Positions 7,065-43,817 of a DNA stretch of 64,000 bases are shown one piece after another. Numbering within the stretch: position 1 is the stretch's first letter; each line of letters begins with the position of its first letter. The notes beneath the pieces are model-generated. The model worked only from the letters and a program-made list of their open reading frames with translations, did not search any database and was not told the DNA's origin. Source of the DNA: Bacteroidia bacterium (GTDB taxonomy: Bacteria > Bacteroidota > Bacteroidia > B-17B0 > Aurantibacillaceae); assembly GCA_022841465.1 (NCBI GenBank), contig JALHRL010000008.1, positions 1 through 64,000 on the forward strand, written 5' to 3'. Position numbers and translations under genes: made by a program.

Positions 7065-9488
7065 CTACCTCAATTCAGCGCCAAATTTTTCTTTGTAAGA
7101 AGAAATTAGTTTCTCCATTACTTTATCAATTTGTTTATCATTAAGTGTTGCCTCTTCACTTTGTAAAATAAAACTAAGTGCATACGATTTTTTTCCGCCC
7201 AATTTTTCCCCTTCATAAACGTCAAATAAATTTACCTCTTTTAATAATTTGCGTTCTGTATTAAAAGCAAGTTTCTTTAAATCATCGTACTTAACAGATT
7301 TATCCAATAACATGGCTAAATCTCTTCTTACACTTGGATACAAAGGAAGCTCAGTGAATTGAATTTTTATCTTTTTAGTTGCTTTTAGTAAGGCATCCCA
7401 CGAAAAATCTGCGTAGTACACTTTTGTTTTAATATCAAATGTATTTAAATTCTTTTTGGTTACACTACCAAATTCAACCAGAACATTTTTACCATCAAGA
7501 TATTTTATACCGTATTCTAAATTAGGGCAAGCACTTACTTCCATGGTATAATCGTTTTTACCAATACTTTTTAATACATGTTCCACTGTTGCTTTTAAAA
7601 AATAAAAATCAACATCGTTGTTTAACCCGTACTTATTCTCTTCAAATGCTTTGCCGCTAAGCAATAATGATAGACGCTTGCTTTCATTATACTTTAAACC
7701 GTTTTCTACATTTTTGGTATACGTTTTACCTATTTCATAAAACTTTAAATTACTTTGTTTCCTGTTTAAATTGTAGGCAACTGCTTCTAATCCGCCAAAC
7801 AACAAATCTGCACGCATTACATTTAAATCATTGCTTAAAGGATTTACAACATGAACCAAATTTTCTTTCTTTTCGTAATATGCATCTTTACTTAAAGATA
7901 AACACATTATTTCCGAAAATCCGTTTGACACCAAGGCATTGGAAATTTTCTCTTCTAATACTCTATCGTAATTTTTTTCTTCGTTAAACGCAGTAAACGA
8001 AATGCTCTTAGAAACTTCCACGTTATTGTAACCGTAAATGCGCATTACCTCTTCTACAACATCGGCTGGGCGAGTTACATCAGTTTTATATCTTGGAACC
8101 TGCAGTAATAAACCATCTGCACCTTCAGTTTCAATAACAATTCCTAAAGCCTGAATAATGGTTTTTACTTTTGCTTTATCAATATTTTTGCCAATTAAAT
8201 TGTTGCAATAATTATACGAGAAAGCTACTTTGTAGGGTTCTAATTTTTCAGGATAAACATCCGTAGGCTCCATGCTTAATCTGCCTCCCGCTATTTCAAA
8301 AATTAAATTAGCAGCACGAACCAAAGCAGTAACCGTCATTTCCGGATCAGTACCTCTCTCAAATCTAAAAGAAGCATCGGTTTTTAAAGAATGTTTTTTT
8401 GAAGATTTACGAATAAAACTTGGCTCAAAATAGGCACTTTCTAAAAATATACTAGTAGTTTTTTCAGTAACTCCACTTTCTTCACCACCAAAAACTCCAG
8501 CAATACACATGGGATCCTTCTCGTTACAAATCATTAAATCGCTTGCAGCTAAAGTTCTTTCAACTCCATCTAATGTTTTAAATTTCTGACCTTCTTTTGC
8601 TAAATCAACAATTACCTTTTTTCCGGTAATTTTTTCATAATCAAAAGCGTGTAATGGTTGGCCTGTTTCGTGTAAAACAAAATTGGTAATATCTACTATG
8701 TTGTTAATGGGCCTTAAACCTATGGCTAATAATTTGTTTTTTAACCAATCCGGACTTTCCTTCACCTCTACTCCACTTATTACACAACCGGTATAACGCT
8801 TGCAAGCATCGGCATTTTTAATTTCAATGCTTGCTTTATTTAAACCCGTAGCTTCGGGCAATTCATTTAATCCGGGTAAGTATACTTTATATACTTTTTC
8901 ACTTTGCTGAGAATTTAAAATAGCTGCTAAATCCCTGGCAACACCAAAATGCGAGGCCGCATCGCTTCTGTTGGGTGTTAAACCAATTTCTAATACAGTA
9001 TCATTTTCAATTTTAAAATAATCTGCAGCGGGTAAACCAATCTTAGTATCATCAGGCAACACCATTATTCCTGCATGGCTGGCGCCTAAACCAATTTCAT
9101 CTTCAGCACATAACATTCCTTCGCTGGCAACTCCTCTAATTTTAGATTTTTTTATTTCTAAGGTTTCACCCGAAGACGTGTGAAGAACTGAACCAATGGT
9201 AGCAACAATTACTTTTTGCCCGGCTGCTACATTTGGCGCACCACAAACAATGTTTAATTTTTCACCGGTACCAATATCAACAGTTGTAACTTTTAATTTA
9301 TCGGCATCGGGGTGTTTTTCACAAGTAATAACTTGGCCAATAACCACACCTTTTAAACCACCTTTTACGCTTTCAAAATTCTCAACACCTTCTACTTCTA
9401 AGCCACAAGCTGTAAGTAATTTTGCAGCTTCTTCTGCACTTATATCAACGTTAATTAAGGTTTTTAACCAATTATAGGAAATTTTCAT
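7065..9488 (-). CDS. pheT: Phenylalanine-tRNA ligase beta subunit
   Basis: An 807-residue protein, the usual length for bacterial PheT. It has the EMAP/tRNA-binding OB domain near residues 40-155 (VVIGQVITCEKHPDADKL, NIVCGAPNV), the B3/4 domain (about 210-390, with FRFERGTDPEM at its end), the B5 domain with PRYKTDVTRPADVVEEVMR, the inactive synthetase-like core, and the C-terminal anticodon-binding FDX-ACB domain (about 713-806, LPLYPSVRRDLAMLLD). It pairs with PheS (not in this window) as an alpha2-beta2 enzyme that charges tRNA-Phe and edits mischarged tyrosine. It is a single-gene unit here; its 5' side is a 330-base intergenic region. Confidence 0.97.
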   Translation of the reverse strand: MKISYNWLKTLINVDISAEEAAKLLTACGLEVEGVENFESVKGGLKGVVIGQVITCEKHPDADKLKVTTVDIGTGEKLNIVCGAPNVAAGQKVIVATIGSVLHTSSGETLEIKKSKIRGVASEGMLCAEDEIGLGASHAGIMVLPDDTKIGLPAADYFKIENDTVLEIGLTPNRSDAASHFGVARDLAAILNSQQSEKVYKVYLPGLNELPEATGLNKASIEIKNADACKRYTGCVISGVEVKESPDWLKNKLLAIGLRPINNIVDITNFVLHETGQPLHAFDYEKITGKKVIVDLAKEGQKFKTLDGVERTLAASDLMICNEKDPMCIAGVFGGEESGVTEKTTSIFLESAYFEPSFIRKSSKKHSLKTDASFRFERGTDPEMTVTALVRAANLIFEIAGGRLSMEPTDVYPEKLEPYKVAFSYNYCNNLIGKNIDKAKVKTIIQALGIVIETEGADGLLLQVPRYKTDVTRPADVVEEVMRIYGYNNVEVSKSISFTAFNEEKNYDRVLEEKISNALVSNGFSEIMCLSLSKDAYYEKKENLVHVVNPLSNDLNVMRADLLFGGLEAVAYNLNRKQSNLKFYEIGKTYTKNVENGLKYNESKRLSLLLSGKAFEENKYGLNNDVDFYFLKATVEHVLKSIGKNDYTMEVSACPNLEYGIKYLDGKNVLVEFGSVTKKNLNTFDIKTKVYYADFSWDALLKATKKIKIQFTELPLYPSVRRDLAMLLDKSVKYDDLKKLAFNTERKLLKEVNLFDVYEGEKLGGKKSYALSFILQSEEATLNDKQIDKVMEKLISSYKEKFGAELR

Positions 9489-11898: not shown

Positions 11899-13041
11899 AT
11901 GTTTCAAAAAACCATACAAGAGCTGTCTATAGGCATTTTAGGCGGTGGCCAATTGGGTAAAATGCTTATCCAAAGCGGAATGAACTATAATTTAAACATT
12001 TCCATTTTAGACCCAGATAAAAATGCGCCCTGTAAAAATTTGGTTGGAAAATTTGTGGTGGGCAGTTTAACCGATTTTGATACCGTTTACAAGTTTGGTA
12101 AAGACAAGGATTTGGTTACCATTGAAATTGAAAATGTAAACATTGAAGCATTAAAAAAATTAGAAAAAGAAGGTGTTGAAGTATATCCGCAACCACATAT
12201 TATTGAAATGATTCAGGATAAAGGCTTGCAAAAAATGTTTTACCAACGCAATAACATTCCAAGTCCTGATTTCTTTTTAACCGAAAGCAAAGCGCAAATT
12301 GCAAAATATGCCGATTTTTTTCCATTCTTTCAAAAGCTTCGTAAAGGTGGGTATGATGGCCGCGGAGTTGTAAAATTAGTTTCTCCGCATCATTTAGAAA
12401 AAGCATTTGAAGAACCAAGTGTATTAGAACGTTTAGTAGATTTTGATAAAGAACTTTCTGTTATTGTTTCCAGAAATAAAAATGGGGAAGTAAAATGTTT
12501 TCCGGTGGTTGAATGCGAATTTAATCCACAAGCTAATTTGGTTGAGTTTTTGTTTTGCCCTGCTAATATTAAAAAACAAACCGAAAAAGAAGCCATTGCC
12601 ATTGCCACAAAAATTATAGAAAAATTAGAAATGGTGGGGCTTTTAGCGGTAGAATTATTTTTAACAAAAGACGGTAAAGTTCTTGTAAATGAAATTGCGC
12701 CGCGCGTACATAATAGCGGGCACCAAACCATAGAGTCTAACATTACATCGCAATTTGAACAACAGTGGCGAGCCATTTTAAATTTACCATTGGGCGATAC
12801 TGCTTTGGTAAAACCCGGTGTTATGATTAACTTATTGGGTGATTTTGGCCACGAAGGTTTAGCCCGTTACGAGGGCCTAGAAGATATTTTAAAATTTAGT
12901 GGTGTTTACGTTCATTTATACGGCAAACTTCAAACTAAACCTTTTCGCAAAATGGGCCACATTACGGTGGTTGATGATGACATTACTAAAGCCAAACAAA
13001 AGGCCAAAATGATTAAGAATTTGATTAAAGTAGTGGCTTAA
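11899..13041 (+). CDS. purK: 5-(carboxyamino)imidazole ribonucleotide synthase
   Basis: An ATP-grasp enzyme of about 380 residues that carboxylates aminoimidazole ribonucleotide with bicarbonate and ATP in purine synthesis. The N-terminal LSIGILGGGQLGKMLIQ is the PurK opening; KLRKGGYDGRG is the ATP-grasp loop; NEIAPRVHNSGHQTIE holds the metal and ADP ligands near residues 262-277. I chose the ATG at 11899 because the protein then begins MFQKTIQELSIGIL; a TTG at 11863 would add 12 unconserved residues. The gene is divergent from the metalloprotease. purE is not next to it. The stop codon directly abuts a copy of another gene's 3' end. Confidence 0.95.
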   Translation: MFQKTIQELSIGILGGGQLGKMLIQSGMNYNLNISILDPDKNAPCKNLVGKFVVGSLTDFDTVYKFGKDKDLVTIEIENVNIEALKKLEKEGVEVYPQPHIIEMIQDKGLQKMFYQRNNIPSPDFFLTESKAQIAKYADFFPFFQKLRKGGYDGRGVVKLVSPHHLEKAFEEPSVLERLVDFDKELSVIVSRNKNGEVKCFPVVECEFNPQANLVEFLFCPANIKKQTEKEAIAIATKIIEKLEMVGLLAVELFLTKDGKVLVNEIAPRVHNSGHQTIESNITSQFEQQWRAILNLPLGDTALVKPGVMINLLGDFGHEGLARYEGLEDILKFSGVYVHLYGKLQTKPFRKMGHITVVDDDITKAKQKAKMIKNLIKVVA

Positions 13042-13100
13042 ATTACTTCCCAATTCTATACCCTATTCCAAAACAAAAACTAATAGTTGAAATACTTTGA
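13041..13100 (-). repeat. Detached copy of the 3' end of the beta-barrel gene (copy A)
   Basis: These 60 bases match 13955-14014 at 58 positions. On the minus strand they encode SISTISFCFGIGYRIGK and a stop, versus ...YRIGR in the intact gene. The reading frame stays open upstream for at least 25 more codons without similarity to the intact gene. It begins right at the purK stop codon. Confidence 0.9.
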
Positions 13101-13104
13101 TCCT

Positions 13105-13119
13105 CTACCGAGCGAATCC
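13105..13119. repeat. 15-base GC-rich junction motif, copy 1
   Basis: CTACCGAGCGAATCC occurs four bases after copy A of the duplicated gene end. The same string with one change (CTACCGCGCGAATCC) occurs at 42045-42059, at the equivalent position beside the second duplicated gene end. Confidence 0.65.
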
Positions 13120-13170
13120 ATAAATAAGTATGAAAAAGCACAAAAAAGTTTTGGATAATTAGACGAAGAA

Positions 13171-13506
13171 TTACCTTTCCAATAAACTTTCGATTTCAAC
13201 TTCAAGCTTAGGAAGGTCGCGAATAATTATTGCCCAAATAATATCGTCTGAAACGGAATCGTAACCATGCGAAATTCTGTTTCGGGTATCAACAATTTTT
13301 CGAGAGTTTGATATTTCAATATTGGGATTTTGACTTAAAATTCTATTGACAGCCTCTCCAATAATTTCGAGATTTCGTTCAATGGCTCTTTTTGTTTTAA
13401 GGTCTTTTTGAAATTCTTTAAATAATTTTTTGTCAGGGATAAATTGATTTATTTCAGAAATTGCTTGTTTAATATCTGAAAGCCAAACCTTAATTTCCTT
13501 TTCCAT
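13171..13506 (-). CDS. hepT: HepT-like toxin (HEPN domain, DUF86)
   Basis: A 111-residue all-alpha HEPN protein when started at the ATG at 13506; the longer frame from 13530 adds eight unconserved residues. RNRISHGY at residues 75-82 is the RX4HXY active-site motif of HepT (Arg75, His80, Tyr82). In characterised pairs, HepT is an RNase or its activity is controlled by AMPylation of this Tyr by MntA. It overlaps the end of the antitoxin gene by 17 bases, the standard arrangement of antitoxin first. The pair lies between two copies of a neighbouring gene's 3' end, which suggests that the module was inserted. Confidence 0.88.
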   Translation of the reverse strand: MEKEIKVWLSDIKQAISEINQFIPDKKLFKEFQKDLKTKRAIERNLEIIGEAVNRILSQNPNIEISNSRKIVDTRNRISHGYDSVSDDIIWAIIIRDLPKLEVEIESLLER

Positions 13507-13798
13507 AAACCAGTACTTTAGAATTTTCAATATTTTGAATTAAATATTGATTTTTAATGGCTCTTAGTTCAAGTAAGTCTACATTTCTTTTGAGCACTTT
13601 TTCCAAATTAAATTTAAGGCCAAAATAATTATCAGAATATGTAATGGGATCATTACTTTCAATGTCAACAATTAAATCTATATCACTTGTAGGTTTAAGT
13701 TCGTTTCTAGCCACTGAGCCAAATGCAAATAAAGACTTAACATGATATTTATCACAAAGAGCTTTGATTGATTCGATATTTAAAGAAATTAAATTCAT
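13490..13798 (-). CDS. mntA: MntA-like minimal nucleotidyltransferase antitoxin
   Basis: A 102-residue nucleotidyltransferase. The core motif is GS at 27-28, then Asp39 and Asp41 (GSVARNELKPTSDIDL), exactly the GSX10DXD pattern of MNT proteins. In the HepT/MntA family it neutralises HepT by transferring AMP to the toxin's active-site Tyr. It is transcribed first and overlaps hepT. The 158 bases upstream, between it and the beta-barrel gene, are AT-rich and should hold its promoter, but no clear box was recognised. Confidence 0.88.
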   Translation of the reverse strand: MNLISLNIESIKALCDKYHVKSLFAFGSVARNELKPTSDIDLIVDIESNDPITYSDNYFGLKFNLEKVLKRNVDLLELRAIKNQYLIQNIENSKVLVYGKGN

Positions 13799-13954
13799 TG
13801 CTATTTCAAAGATACTAAATTTTAAGAAATATTATCTCAATAGATAAAATCAATATTCTAGCGATTAAATTGCTTTAAAAAAAGGTTACGATTTTAAATT
13901 ATTTATGTTTTGAATCTCCTTCTACCTAAATTTTATAATAGTAATAAAGTACAG

Positions 13955-14014
13955 AATTACCTCCCAATTCTATACCCAATTCCAAAACAAAAACTAATAG
14001 TTGAAATACTTTGA
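13955..14014 (-). repeat. 3' end of the beta-barrel gene (copy B, in place)
   Basis: The resident copy of the 60-base direct repeat also present at 13041-13100. It covers the last codons (SISTISFCFGIGYRIGR) and the stop codon of the beta-barrel gene. The two differences from copy A are one synonymous Ile codon and Arg versus Lys. Confidence 0.9.
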
Positions 14015-14760
14015 GCAGTGTTTAAGTTATCAAAATAAGGCTTATTGATGTTGCGCCCGGTAGAAGAATAAAAGAAATCAGGATTTAATGAAAGTGTAAA
14101 CTTATCATTTAAATTTTTCTTTAATCCAAAGCCTAATTTAAATGCAAACCTGGTTTCAGAATTACTGGCAATGGTTTCGCTTACTGATGTTGCTTTTGCT
14201 GAACTGGGTTCAAAAACATACTCGGGAGTTTTGCTAACACATAAACCAACTAAAAAACGAGGAGTAAAATAATTATCTTCTCCTAACTTAAATTCATATG
14301 AACCACCAAGCAAAATAAAGTTATTACGCCAGTTTTCGTTCACCTTTAGCACATAATTATTTTTTTTCGCTAAGGCATTTTTAGAAAACTCTGCTTCTTT
14401 AAAATCGTTTGTTTGACGCGAGTAGGAAACTAAAAAATCAATATTCTCTTTTACTCTAATGGAAAAATTTAATCCAATAGAAAGGCCCTCACGCGCATAA
14501 CCTGCTAATGGATTTGCAAAATAATCGTTGTTATAATTTCCTATAGGTTTAGATAAACCAAAATGAAACTCAATTGAAATAAAATCTTTTTTAGTTACTT
14601 TTTTTGAGGTGTCAGCCGGTGCAATGCTATCTATAATTGCTGTATGAATTATTAAACTTGTATCCGGTCTTAACGTTGCTTTAACCGAAAGTGAATCTGT
14701 TTGAGCAAAGCATAAACTGCTAATTAAAATTAAATACGTTAATGCTATGCCTTGCTTCAT
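13957..14760 (-). CDS. Outer membrane beta-barrel protein
   Basis: A 267-residue protein. The signal peptide is residues 1-19 (ALTYLILISSLCFAQ). A Ser/Thr/Asp-rich linker precedes a barrel-like region from about residue 60, with alternating hydrophobic strands: FISIEFHFGLSKPIG, LSIGLNFSIRVKENIDFLVSYSRQ, FTLSLNPDFFYSSTG, and a final SFCFGIGYRI. It resembles the PorT/OmpW-like small barrels annotated as outer membrane beta-barrel proteins in Bacteroidota; no specific function can be given. The last strand is the part duplicated beyond the toxin-antitoxin pair. Confidence 0.75.
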   Translation of the reverse strand: MKQGIALTYLILISSLCFAQTDSLSVKATLRPDTSLIIHTAIIDSIAPADTSKKVTKKDFISIEFHFGLSKPIGNYNNDYFANPLAGYAREGLSIGLNFSIRVKENIDFLVSYSRQTNDFKEAEFSKNALAKKNNYVLKVNENWRNNFILLGGSYEFKLGEDNYFTPRFLVGLCVSKTPEYVFEPSSAKATSVSETIASNSETRFAFKLGFGLKKNLNDKFTLSLNPDFFYSSTGRNINKPYFDNLNTAQSISTISFCFGIGYRIGR

Positions 14761-40736: not shown

Positions 40737-41894
40737 ATGAGCGATTTTTCTAAACACAAATTTGGCACCAAGGCTATTCATGCCGGTGCTGATCCAGATC
40801 CATCAACCGGAGCAATTATGACTCCCATATTTCAAACATCAACCTACGTGCAACAATCGCCGGGTGTTAACAAAGGTTATGGTTATGCGCGCGGAAAAAA
40901 CCCTACACGCGAAGCATTACAAAAAAATATTGCAGCGCTTGAAAACGGTAAACATTGCGTATGCTTTAGTTCGGGTATGGGTGCCACAGATGCAGTAATG
41001 CGCATGTTACGCCCCGGTGATGAAGTAATTACAGGCGATGATTTATACGGAGGCTCTTACCGAATGTTTACCAAAATTTACGAAAACTACGGCATTAAAT
41101 TTCACTTCATTAATTTAACCGATGTCGAAAATATTAAAAAGTACATCAATAAAAACACTAAGCTAATTTGGGCAGAAACACCTACCAACCCAACGATGCA
41201 AATCATAGACATTGAAGCTTGTTCTAAAATTGCAAAAGCCAATAATTTAATTTTAGCGGTTGATAATACGTTTGCTTCCCCTTATTTACAAAACCCATTG
41301 GCCCTGGGGGCAGATATTGTAATGCATTCGGTAACTAAATACCTGGGCGGACATAGTGACGTAGTTATGGGAGCCTTGGTAATGAACGATGATAAATTGC
41401 ACGAGCAAATTTATTTTATTCTAAACAGCTGCGGCGCCAACCCGGGGCCTATGGATTGCTTTTTAGTAATGCGCGGTATTAAAACCTTGCATTTACGTAT
41501 GGAGCGCCATTGTTTTAACGGAAAAAAAATTGCCGAGTTTTTAAAAACACATCCGAAAATTGAAAAAATATACTGGCCTGGTTTTACCGACCATCCTAAC
41601 CACCAAATTGCCAAAAAACAAATGCGCGATTTTGGAGGAATGATTTCCATTGTATTAAAAGGTGCAAGTATTGAGGATACATTTAAAATTGCATCCTCAT
41701 TTAAAGTGTTTTCATTGGCAGAAAGTTTAGGTGGTGTTGAATCGTTAATTAACCATCCGGCAACTATGACGCATGCTTCTATTCCTAAAGCAGAGCGCGA
41801 AAAGGCAGGAGTGGTTGATAACCTGTTGCGTTTAAGTGTGGGCGTAGAAGATGTAGAAGATTTGATAGAAGATTTAAAACAAGCTTTAGCATAA
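40737..41894 (+). CDS. Cystathionine gamma-lyase / gamma-synthase family PLP enzyme
   Basis: A 385-residue Cys/Met-metabolism PLP enzyme. KFGTKAIHAGADPDPSTGAI and YGYARGKNPTREALQ are the N-terminal blocks; FSSGMGATDAV starts the cofactor site; the PLP lysine is Lys201 in SVTKYLGGHSD; SLGGVESLINHPATMTH is the substrate carboxylate-binding segment. Lyase and synthase cannot be told apart reliably by eye. A cystathionine beta-synthase gene is 2 kb away, so gamma-lyase in the reverse transsulfuration pathway is the better guess. Its last codons and the terminator behind it are duplicated at 42109-42160. Confidence 0.88.
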   Translation: MSDFSKHKFGTKAIHAGADPDPSTGAIMTPIFQTSTYVQQSPGVNKGYGYARGKNPTREALQKNIAALENGKHCVCFSSGMGATDAVMRMLRPGDEVITGDDLYGGSYRMFTKIYENYGIKFHFINLTDVENIKKYINKNTKLIWAETPTNPTMQIIDIEACSKIAKANNLILAVDNTFASPYLQNPLALGADIVMHSVTKYLGGHSDVVMGALVMNDDKLHEQIYFILNSCGANPGPMDCFLVMRGIKTLHLRMERHCFNGKKIAEFLKTHPKIEKIYWPGFTDHPNHQIAKKQMRDFGGMISIVLKGASIEDTFKIASSFKVFSLAESLGGVESLINHPATMTHASIPKAEREKAGVVDNLLRLSVGVEDVEDLIEDLKQALA

Positions 41895-41899
41895 ATAAA

Positions 41900-41930
41900 A
41901 AATCCCCGAAAATATTCGGGGATTTTTTAA
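41900..41930. terminator. Intrinsic terminator after the cystathionine enzyme gene
   Basis: Stem AAATCCCCGAA (41900-41910) with TTCGGGGATTT (41915-41925), four-base loop, then a T-run. It has a diverged counterpart at 42134-42160 in which both arms changed together. Confidence 0.93.
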
Positions 41931-41945
41931 ACCTTTATTTCTTTC

Positions 41946-42036
41946 TTAGCTTTTAAACTTATTCATTTTATCAGCCAATTTAATAGCCTCATACAAATTA
42001 ATTAAACCGGCGTTTTTACCTAATTCTTCAAACTTT
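41946..42036 (-). pseudogene. Detached C-terminal fragment of a subtilase gene
   Basis: On the minus strand this encodes KFEELGKNAGLINLYEAI and KLADKMNKFKS, then a stop. The first 23 residues equal the C-terminal region of the intact subtilase at 42183-43817, but the last seven (MNKFKS versus VYSIRVPF) differ. All three base differences within the homologous part are synonymous. An in-frame stop lies just upstream, so the fragment cannot be expressed as a protein. Confidence 0.85.
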
Positions 42037-42044
42037 ACCCTACG

Positions 42045-42059
42045 CTACCGCGCGAATCC
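42045..42059. repeat. 15-base GC-rich junction motif, copy 2
   Basis: CTACCGCGCGAATCC, eight bases after the detached subtilase end; one mismatch to the copy at 13105-13119. Confidence 0.65.
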
Positions 42060-42070
42060 CTTCGCGTGGT
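42047..42070. repeat. 10-bp hairpin between the duplicated gene ends
   Basis: ACCGCGCGAA (42047-42056) pairs with TTCGCGTGGT (42061-42070) around a TCCC loop; one pair is G-T. It contains most of the junction motif. No T-run follows. It looks like a short REP-like palindrome. Confidence 0.65.
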
Positions 42071-42108
42071 GGCAATTATTTATTTTTTTCACAATCTAAT
42101 TCCAAAAA

Positions 42109-42279
42109 TTAAAACAAGCATTAGCATAAATAAAAAAGCTCCGAAAATTTCGGAGCTTTTTAGTTGGAAAGAACTTTTAATATTAAAAAGGAACTCGAAT
42201 AGAATAAACTTTATCAGCCAATTTAATAGCCTCATACAAATTAATTAAACCGGCATTTTTACCTAGTTCTTCAAATTTT
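42109..42279. repeat. Second copy of the duplicated convergent gene-end segment (U2)
   Basis: It begins with a detached copy of the last codons of the cystathionine enzyme (KQALA and stop at 42112-42129), continues with a second terminator, and runs into the real 3' end of the subtilase gene. Confidence 0.88.
42134..42160. terminator. Intrinsic terminator after the subtilase gene (diverged duplicate)
   Basis: AAAAGCTCCGAAA (42134-42146) and TTTCGGAGCTTTT (42148-42160), an almost perfect palindrome with A-run and T-run on the two sides, so it can act on both strands. It derives from the same ancestor as the terminator at 41900, with paired changes in the stem. Confidence 0.9.
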
Positions 42280-43817
42280 ATGTAACGGTCTTTTTCACCT
42301 TTTTTGCTACCGGGTTTAATTACCTTTTTTCCTTTGTAGGTTTTTAAACTGCTCTTTATTAGAATAGTTTTAATTTGTTCAGGTGTAAGTTTTGGGTAGT
42401 ACGATTTTAAAACCGCTGCAACACCGGCAGCTACAGGTGTTGCCATACTAGTACCACTTGCATCTTGATACTTACCTTCCGGTGCGGTTGAGTAAATATC
42501 TACTCCAGGTGCAAACAAATCAATAGATTTTTTTCCGTAGTTTGTAAATGGCGCTGCAATTAAACTATCGGGCTTCCAACTTAAAGCGCCAATGGTTATC
42601 ATATTGCTTGCATAACCTTTATCCTCATATTTTGCTGTTGGGTAATGTGTAATTTTATCAATATTTAAATGATCGTTACCCGCGGCGTGCATTAACAATA
42701 CCCCTTTCTTTTGTGCATATTTCACAGCATCATCTACCACTTTTTTATTCCACGAATATTTTTTACCAAAACTCATATTTATTATTTGAGCGCCGTTATC
42801 AACTGCATATAAAATTGCATTGGCTATATCTTTATCGTGCTCATCGCCATTTGGTACACATCTAACCGACATAATTTTTACATCTGCAGCAACCCCATCC
42901 ATACCTACTCCATTGTTTCTTTTTGCAGCAATAATACCTGCAACGTGTGTTCCATGAAAACTATGCGGGCCTTTGCAATCTGCATTACCATAATTTTTTT
43001 CGTATAAATTATTATAATCATCTCCCACTATTTCTCTAGGGTTAACATCGGGATTTAAACCCACTTCAATCATGGTTGACATTTGTCCCCAACCTTCTTC
43101 AACACTTTCTTTAAATTCATCGTAAGTGGTTTTACCCGATTTTAATGACATAGAAACAATTGCTTTAATTTGCTTTGCTTCCTTATCTTCAGGGCTGTAT
43201 TTTTCTAAGGTTTCCTTTGTAATAACGGTGGTACTTTGTTGAGCCTTAATTGCCTCTTCCATTTTCACCATTCCTTCTCTAATAAACTTCAGCTGGTTAT
43301 AACCCGGCTCGTACTTCGCCTTCGTTGCTTCCATATCTTTTTTAACGGCTTCGTAAATTGCCAATTCTTCTTTTTCTTGTTTTGATTTAAAATCAGCTTT
43401 GGTTTTACCTTCGTATTTAGGTTTGTATTTTCTGTACAAACGTGTCATTTCTAAATTCTCCGCATCCACATTTTTACCGTCTTTACCGCCTAAAAAACTC
43501 CAACCATGTATATCATCAATGTATCCATTTTTATCATCGTCTATTCCATTCCCTGGAATTTCTCCTGGATTAACCCACATTACATCTTTTAAATCTTCGT
43601 GATAATAATCTACACCACTGTCTAAAACAGCAACTACTACAGGAACCGGTTTTCTGTCTTTCAACAGCTCTTTATAAGTACGCTCGGTACTTACGCCATT
43701 TACCTTATCGGTAGTTGGATCGAGGTTAAACCAATTATCCGGACGCTTTGCCGGAGTTTGAGCCAACATAAAACCGCCTAATAAAAGCGCGGAAATGGAC
43801 AGAATAATTCTCTTCAT
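42183..43817 (-). CDS. Secreted subtilisin-like serine protease (S8 family)
   Basis: A 544-residue exported protease with signal peptide 1-20 (IILSISALLLGGFMLAQ). The catalytic triad is Asp66 (VAVLDSGVD), His288 (HGTHVAGI) and Ser457 (GTSMATPVAAG). A highly charged insert of about 200 residues (roughly 90-280, many Lys and Glu, EEKTK-like) lies between the Asp and His, a feature of the Bacteroidota group of these subtilases. There is no type IX sorting domain, so it is probably periplasmic or outer-membrane associated. The C-terminal tail (VYSIRVPF) differs from that in the detached copy at 41946. Confidence 0.93.
   Translation of the reverse strand: MKRIILSISALLLGGFMLAQTPAKRPDNWFNLDPTTDKVNGVSTERTYKELLKDRKPVPVVVAVLDSGVDYYHEDLKDVMWVNPGEIPGNGIDDDKNGYIDDIHGWSFLGGKDGKNVDAENLEMTRLYRKYKPKYEGKTKADFKSKQEKEELAIYEAVKKDMEATKAKYEPGYNQLKFIREGMVKMEEAIKAQQSTTVITKETLEKYSPEDKEAKQIKAIVSMSLKSGKTTYDEFKESVEEGWGQMSTMIEVGLNPDVNPREIVGDDYNNLYEKNYGNADCKGPHSFHGTHVAGIIAAKRNNGVGMDGVAADVKIMSVRCVPNGDEHDKDIANAILYAVDNGAQIINMSFGKKYSWNKKVVDDAVKYAQKKGVLLMHAAGNDHLNIDKITHYPTAKYEDKGYASNMITIGALSWKPDSLIAAPFTNYGKKSIDLFAPGVDIYSTAPEGKYQDASGTSMATPVAAGVAAVLKSYYPKLTPEQIKTILIKSSLKTYKGKKVIKPGSKKGEKDRYIKFEELGKNAGLINLYEAIKLADKVYSIRVPF

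What the first reader, a model, noticed from the sequence alone, without database searches (positions are those of the whole stretch)
13041..14014. HepT/MntA toxin-antitoxin pair bracketed by two copies of a neighbouring gene's 3' end
The last 60 bases of the beta-barrel gene (13955-14014) are repeated at 13041-13100 with 58 of 60 matches, exactly on the far side of the toxin-antitoxin genes and starting at the purK stop codon. The two differences are one synonymous change and Arg to Lys, so the detached copy seems to come from a functional relative, not from decay in place. Beyond the shared part, copy A stays in an open frame with unrelated residues (HTYLWIRSVEDQ). This looks like a module brought in with its own version of the host gene end, or inserted into a paralogue and leaving only its tail.
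Basis: partly seen in the sequence, partly recalled or inferred. Interest (0 to 1): 0.72.

Follow-up and report, generated by a model that had tools for sequence, protein, structure and literature searches.

The report
Toxin-antitoxin insertion with duplicated gene end
A common toxin-antitoxin gene pair landed between two bacterial genes and left a 60-base duplicate of one neighbour's end as a scar; a similar scar without any toxin genes lies 29 kb away, and both scars touch a piece of the same small palindromic repeat.

Summary
13041-13100 and 13955-14014 match at 58/60 positions, occur nowhere else in the genome, and bracket an intact HepT/MntA pair. The only relative found with both neighbours, G008, has an empty site: purK and the barrel gene converge, with overlapping stop codons and no toxin-antitoxin genes. 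Copy A therefore sits where the native gene end should be, and copy B restores the barrel gene beyond an 854-bp insert. The two differences between the copies do not show that one came from a functional relative; random change would look as benign about 18% of the time.

Two findings change the picture. First, the insert begins with half of a REP palindrome whose family surrounds a Y1 (RAYT-type) transposase in this genome. The 'unrelated residues' IRSVED are translated from it. Second, a similar scar without toxin-antitoxin genes lies at 41967-42280: a 71-bp duplicate of a subtilase gene's end, with a full REP at the same edge. These are the genome's only two exact copies of this REP subtype. 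Related modules in the genus have no flanking repeats.

I read it as an insertion with long target duplication, known for restriction-modification systems, and REP-linked here rather than caused by the toxin-antitoxin pair. The joining mechanism is inferred.

The parts
11902..13041 (+). purK (5-(carboxyamino)imidazole ribonucleotide synthase), left neighbour, intact
   Evidence: NCBIfam PRK06019 390 bits, over its cut-off; 88% identical in G008 and G043
13041..13100 (-). Copy A: detached 3' end of the beta-barrel gene, at the native position against purK (encodes QSISTISFCFGIGYRIGK*)
   Evidence: 58/60 to copy B; G008 has the gene end at this position
13105..13119 (+). Half REP, CTACCGAGCGAATCC: left arm plus part of the loop of the palindrome
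   Evidence: only exact CTACCGMGCGAATCC match in the genome besides 42045; REP family; hairpin
13120..13170 (.). Insert DNA of unknown origin between the half REP and the HepT stop codon
   Evidence: no convincing match to any fetched locus
13171..13506 (-). HepT-like HEPN RNase toxin, intact, RX4HXY motif at residue 75
   Evidence: PF01934 E 4e-22; motif
13490..13798 (-). MntA-like nucleotidyltransferase antitoxin, intact, GSX10DXD motif at residue 27; overlaps the HepT start
   Evidence: PF01909 E 1e-16; motif
13169..13834 (-). Homologous core of the module shared with five other loci of the genus (75-80% DNA identity), including a promoter-like stretch just before MntA
13835..13954 (.). Insert DNA of unknown origin upstream of the module
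   Evidence: no convincing match to fetched loci; resemblance to the purK end or to a second REP half not significant
13955..14014 (-). Copy B: 3' end still attached to the beta-barrel gene (encodes QSISTISFCFGIGYRIGR*)
13957..14760 (-). Outer-membrane beta-barrel gene, intact
   Evidence: PF13505 E 1.5e-5, 25.7 bits, just below its 28.7 cut-off; 41% identical to its counterpart at the G008 empty site
41967..42037 (-). Second scar: detached copy of the 3' end of the S8 peptidase gene, carrying the native-looking C-terminus ...KLADKMNKFKS*
   Evidence: 96% of 71 nt to 42210-42280; relatives end ...KLADKMNGFKG / KLADKMNNFKG
42041..42074 (+). Full REP palindrome at the edge of the second scar (13-bp stem, TCCC loop)
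42104..42161 (+). Diverged copy of the end and terminator of gene 40737-41894, inside the insert of the second scar
   Evidence: 89% over the best 54 columns of 41874-41927; alignment
42210..42280 (-). Attached copy of the S8 peptidase 3' end; the gene now ends ...KLADKVYSIRVPF*

Best explanation
An 854-bp piece of DNA carrying a functional-looking HepT/MntA module was inserted into the last codons of the beta-barrel gene, where that gene converges on purK with no space between. The insertion duplicated 60 bp of the target. The native gene end (copy A) stayed beside purK, and a second copy (B) was left attached to the gene body, so neither neighbour was broken. The likely route is opening of the target with widely staggered single-strand ends, or template switching during repair, capture of a fragment that began at a REP palindrome, and filling in, giving X-insert-X. 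The same outcome without toxin-antitoxin genes 29 kb away suggests that the REP or ordinary repair, not the toxin-antitoxin pair, drove the event; the pair was a passenger or a later arrival in the REP. Shown: the duplication, its position, the empty site in one relative, the REP at both edges, the intact motifs. Inferred: the order of events and the joining mechanism.
For: Empty site in G008 with abutting convergent stop codons and one gene end. Repeat unique in the genome. Exact REP-subtype motif at the left edge of both inserts; only two exact copies genome-wide. In 1.26 Mb scanned (the window plus 1.2 Mb), detached copies of gene ends of this size (60 and 71 bp) were found at these two places only. 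REP family tied to a Y1 transposase gene flanked by REPs. Second scar: the detached copy keeps the C-terminus seen in relatives and the attached copy has a new one, so insertion with duplication is the simplest reading. Related modules elsewhere in the genus lack flanking repeats. [quoted passage not shown] PMC3031569).
Against: Only one relative has the barrel gene at this site, at 41% protein identity, so the empty site rests on one distant genome. None of the other REPs of this genome is bracketed by comparable repeats, nor, apart from one weak 57-bp, 82% case in G103, are REPs in other genomes, so a REP is not sufficient. Only half a REP is present here, and no second half was found at the other edge. 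Random genome sites show internal repeats of this strength in about 2% of trials. No closely related strain was available.
Confidence: 0.55

Rival explanations
1. Import with the donor's own gene end: a fragment from a relative carrying HepT/MntA and that relative's version of the barrel gene end recombined by homology on the gene side and joined illegitimately on the other, so copy B is foreign and copy A native.
For: Copy A is at the native position, so B is the newcomer. The two copies differ. At the second scar the piece 42104-42161 is a diverged gene end with a different terminator stem, as foreign allelic DNA would be. Merodiploids formed by transformation are known (PMC3784515, listed; not read beyond the abstract).
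Against: The two differences fit neutral drift of a detached copy (P 0.18). The DNA just before copy B is not a convincing purK end (255 of 4000 genomic stretches align as well). No donor found.
Confidence: 0.2
2. Self-mobile addiction module: HepT/MntA itself moves with long target duplication, as proposed for restriction-modification systems; the REP fragment is incidental.
For: Five related modules sit in other places of the genus, with homology ending near the genes in comparison with the window. Precedent for restriction-modification systems (PMC3874152).
Against: Those modules have no flanking repeats. A similar scar without the genes exists.
Confidence: 0.12
3. Attachment-site integration: the gene end is an attB, copies A and B are attL/attR of a reduced element that lost its integrase.
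For: Geometry fits: identity covers the gene end to the stop codon, mismatches lie only on the stop side of a 36-bp exact block.
Against: No integrase among the ORFs of the 854-bp insert; no other copy of the 60 bp in the genome or of 52 of its bases in viral contigs.
Confidence: 0.07
4. Remnant of a tandem paralogue of the barrel gene, most of it replaced by the module.
For: The gene end is duplicated and the frame upstream of copy A is open.
Against: Identity stops abruptly after 60 bp and the next bases are a REP; G008 has a single gene there; no relative with that end.
Confidence: 0.03
5. Assembly artefact of a draft genome.
Against: The copies differ, the longest exact run is 36 bp, shorter than usual assembly words, the contig is 135 kb and the gene order on both sides matches G008.
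Confidence: 0.03

Closest known systems
Insertion with long target duplication of restriction-modification systems (Nobusato et al. 2000; Furuta et al. 2010; described in PMC3874152 and PMC3031569)
   Same: A small two-gene addiction module lies between direct copies of target DNA of the order of 100 bp, with no integrase or transposase of its own; the neighbouring genes stay intact.
   Different: Toxin-antitoxin instead of restriction-modification; uncultured Bacteroidia; REP palindrome at the insert edge; an equivalent scar without the module. The two primary papers were not read (one not held) and are cited through PMC3874152 and PMC3031569.
HepT/MntA (HEPN-MNT, type VII) toxin-antitoxin systems (PMC7641770)
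   Same: PF01934 and PF01909 pair with RX4HXY and GSX10DXD motifs and overlapping genes.
   Different: Below the NCBIfam equivalog cut-offs (38.7 and 50.1 against 60 bits); otherwise ordinary.
REP elements and RAYT (TnpA-REP) transposases (PMC6006769; PMC8266576 seen as abstract only)
   Same: Dispersed GC-rich palindromes, also flanking a Y1 transposase gene in the same genome.
   Different: Here REP copies sit at the edge of inserts bracketed by 60-71 bp duplications; I recall no such duplication for REP spread, and the papers were not read in full for it.
Integrative elements that use a gene's 3' end as attachment site (from general knowledge)
   Same: Direct repeats that rebuild the gene end.
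   Different: No integrase among the insert's ORFs and no second occurrence of the site.

Membership tests
HepT/MntA type VII toxin-antitoxin (class I) | Adjacent PF01934 toxin and PF01909 antitoxin | tested here: met
   both above the Pfam cut-off
HepT/MntA type VII toxin-antitoxin (class I) | RX4HXY in HepT and GSX10DXD in MntA | tested here: met
   RNRISHGY and GSVARNELKPTSDID; definition from PMC7641770
HepT/MntA type VII toxin-antitoxin (class I) | NCBIfam equivalog cut-off | tested here: not met
   38.7 and 50.1 bits against 60; a score threshold, not a mechanistic feature
HepT/MntA type VII toxin-antitoxin (class I) | RNase toxicity neutralised by adenylylation of the HepT tyrosine | not testable with these tools
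   needs expression and mass spectrometry
Insertion with long target duplication | Insert bracketed by direct repeats of the order of 100 bp made of target sequence | tested here: met
   60 bp and 71 bp; size given in PMC3874152
[quoted passage not shown]
   G008, one relative only and distant; for the second scar no relative with both neighbours was found
Insertion with long target duplication | The module itself causes the movement | tested here: inconclusive
   module-free scar at 41967-42280; related modules without repeats
REP/RAYT | Dispersed GC-rich palindrome, copies next to a Y1 transposase gene | tested here: met
   about 15 copies in G000
REP/RAYT | Complete palindrome at this site | tested here: not met
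   only one arm, 13105-13119
Integrative element at a gene 3' end | Integrase gene within the element | tested here: not met
   no such ORF in 13101-13954

The most novel reading that the evidence does not exclude
REP palindromes handled by a RAYT-type transposase can mark or trigger insertions that duplicate 60-70 bp of a gene's 3' end, so that DNA, including toxin-antitoxin pairs, enters densely packed gene junctions without destroying the gene, sometimes giving it a new C-terminus.
Probability: 0.12. Interest if true: 0.72.

Novelty: new variant of a known kind. Interest (0 to 1): 0.42.

Why it matters
How small toxin-antitoxin modules without transposases enter chromosomes is largely unexplained. 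Here the scar of one such event is readable, with native gene end, insert edge and restored gene, and a module-free twin shows that the insertion process need not depend on the module. If the REP link holds, it gives a testable role for REP palindromes in duplicating and altering gene ends.

Tried and rejected
A relative ending ...SVEDQSIS: none found. Close relatives of the barrel gene in the 84,980-species collection: none. The repeat in viral contigs: none. Extension of the duplication into the purK end: 255 of 4000 genomic stretches align as well, so not claimed. A second REP half at 13912-13922: 818 of 4000, rejected. Shared right edges of the two inserts: 729 of 20000, not claimed. REP insertion always duplicating its target: rejected, since the other REPs of the genome have no comparable flanking repeats and among REPs of other genomes only one weak case appeared. 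The TGTCCGCCACAACTGGTAACAGC block as a genome-wide cassette array: rejected, its exact copies sit only beside HepT genes.

Full report
Observation. The repeat is real: 58 of 60 bases, no gaps, abrupt edges, no third copy in the 3.77-Mb genome. The bracketed genes are an intact HepT-like toxin (13171-13506, minus) and an MntA-like antitoxin (13490-13798, minus), with the signature motifs RNRISHGY and GSVARNELKPTSDID, which define class I HepT/MntA pairs (PMC7641770). They fall below the NCBIfam equivalog cut-offs.

Empty site. The window lies in a draft genome (G000, 125 contigs) of an unnamed member of Bacteroidia; its named relatives are metagenome-assembled Bacteroidota. Of 40 genomes of the genus, purK is 88% identical in G008 and G043. 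In G008, purK and a 41% identical barrel gene converge with overlapping stop codons, with no toxin-antitoxin genes and the same neighbours beyond. In G043 the barrel gene is absent and a 99-codon ORF stands there. Copy A, abutting purK, therefore holds the native position; copy B closes the reading frame of the gene on the far side of the insert. This rests on one distant relative.

The two differences. Lys/Arg and a synonymous Ile codon look benign, but two random substitutions in this stretch are both synonymous or conservative with probability about 0.18, so nothing follows about a functional relative.

What lies at the break. Directly behind copy A comes TCCT-CTACCGAGCGAATCC. The motif CTACCG[AC]GCGAATCC occurs exactly twice in the genome, here and at 42045-42059. 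There it is the left arm of a palindrome, GCTACCGCGCGAA-TCCC-TTCGCGTGGTGGC, predicted to form a 13-bp hairpin. About fifteen related palindromes, mostly with CTCCCG at this place, are scattered over the genome, three of them around a 186-codon gene of the IS200-like Y1 transposase family (PF01797, E 3e-8) at contig 33. This is the arrangement of REP elements and RAYT transposases; Bacteroidetes have their own subclass with atypical REPs (PMC6006769). At the toxin-antitoxin locus only the left arm and part of the loop remain; a second half was not found. With 11 places within one mismatch of this motif in 3.77 Mb, a REP within about 10 bases of a given break has a chance of the order of 1 in 10,000 (my estimate).

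The second scar. A scan of 1.26 Mb (the window plus 1.2 Mb of the genome) for close direct repeats gave few hits. Two are detached gene ends of this size, both in this window; a 41-bp hit touching a gene end on contig 3 proved on inspection to be part of an intergenic repeat series. The second is 41967-42037, a 71-bp copy (96%) of the end of the S8 peptidase gene 42183-43817. The detached copy ends ...KLADKMNKFKS*, as relatives do (...KLADKMNGFKG...KLADKMNNFKG), while the attached gene ends ...KLADKVYSIRVPF*. The full REP stands at the edge of the 172-bp insert, next to the detached copy, in the same orientation as at the first scar. The insert also holds a diverged end and terminator of the other neighbour, a Cys/Met metabolism PLP enzyme gene. 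No relative with both neighbours was found, so there is no empty site for this one.

The module in relatives. HepT-like genes occur in 19 of 40 genomes of the genus. Five loci in other genomes share only the block corresponding to 13169-13834 with the window, at unrelated places, and none has flanking repeats. Several share among themselves a further 3' block beginning TGTGTCCGCCACAACTGGTAACAGC that the window copy lacks. The module moves, but not with this kind of scar as a rule.

Interpretation. X-insert-X with X of 60 and 71 bp and a REP at the same edge is best read as insertion with long target duplication. That structure was described for restriction-modification systems, with duplications of the order of 100 bp and no linked mobile element (PMC3874152; PMC3031569). 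In a junction where two genes touch, only an insertion that duplicates the gene end leaves both genes whole, so surviving insertions may be biased towards it (inference). Whether copy B was made from the target or came with a donor fragment cannot be decided without a close strain. A REP alone is not sufficient: apart from the two scars, no REP of this genome is bracketed by comparable repeats, and in other genomes only one weak case (57 bp, 82%, G103) was seen. At random sites repeats of similar strength appear in about 2% of trials, mostly within genes I would guess, so the case rests on exact position and gene-end content.

Verdict. The toxin-antitoxin pair is ordinary. The REP-linked, module-free twin scar is the most interesting part and lies outside the original coordinates.

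Noticed in passing
window 41869-42280: Twin scar: 71-bp duplicate of the end of the S8 peptidase gene around a REP, with a diverged copy of the other neighbour's end and terminator whose stem bases differ; the peptidase gene has gained a new C-terminus (VYSIRVPF).
   Followed up: yes
G000:C33:16204-16958 (L268): RAYT-type Y1 transposase gene flanked by three REP palindromes; related REP-transposase units in G014:C4 and G049:C111.
   Followed up: partly
L096, L097, L085, L088 (downstream of HepT): Related HepT/MntA modules share a non-coding block after HepT beginning TGTGTCCGCCACAACTGGTAACAGC and, in some, before MntA a sequence close to its inverted repeat; a possible end of a mobile unit.
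   Followed up: partly
L101, L105, L110, L112, L119, L120: HepT loci of other Bacteroidia with direct repeats of about 50-200 bp nearby on both sides; may be cassette-like arrays or unrelated repeats.
   Followed up: no
L247 6899-7848 and 8189-8828 (G000:C17): 133-bp perfect direct repeat about 340 bp before the genome's second HepT/MntA pair, in a field of CCCCCTTCGCCAAGGGGG-type repeats around a small ORF (7186-7545).
   Followed up: no
L204 2196-4169 (G051:C186): HepT/MntA pair directly beside an insertion-sequence-like transposase pair; HepT carries an in-frame TGA.
   Followed up: no
L231 16300-16760 (G000:C3): Two neighbouring genes both end in EQVDDVCIIGIRL, with tandem palindromic repeats (GCATTATAGGCGAATGCCTAT) after one of them.
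   Followed up: no
L320 (G103:C1:10341): A REP in another genome with a 57-bp, 82% direct repeat on both sides, not at a gene end.
   Followed up: partly
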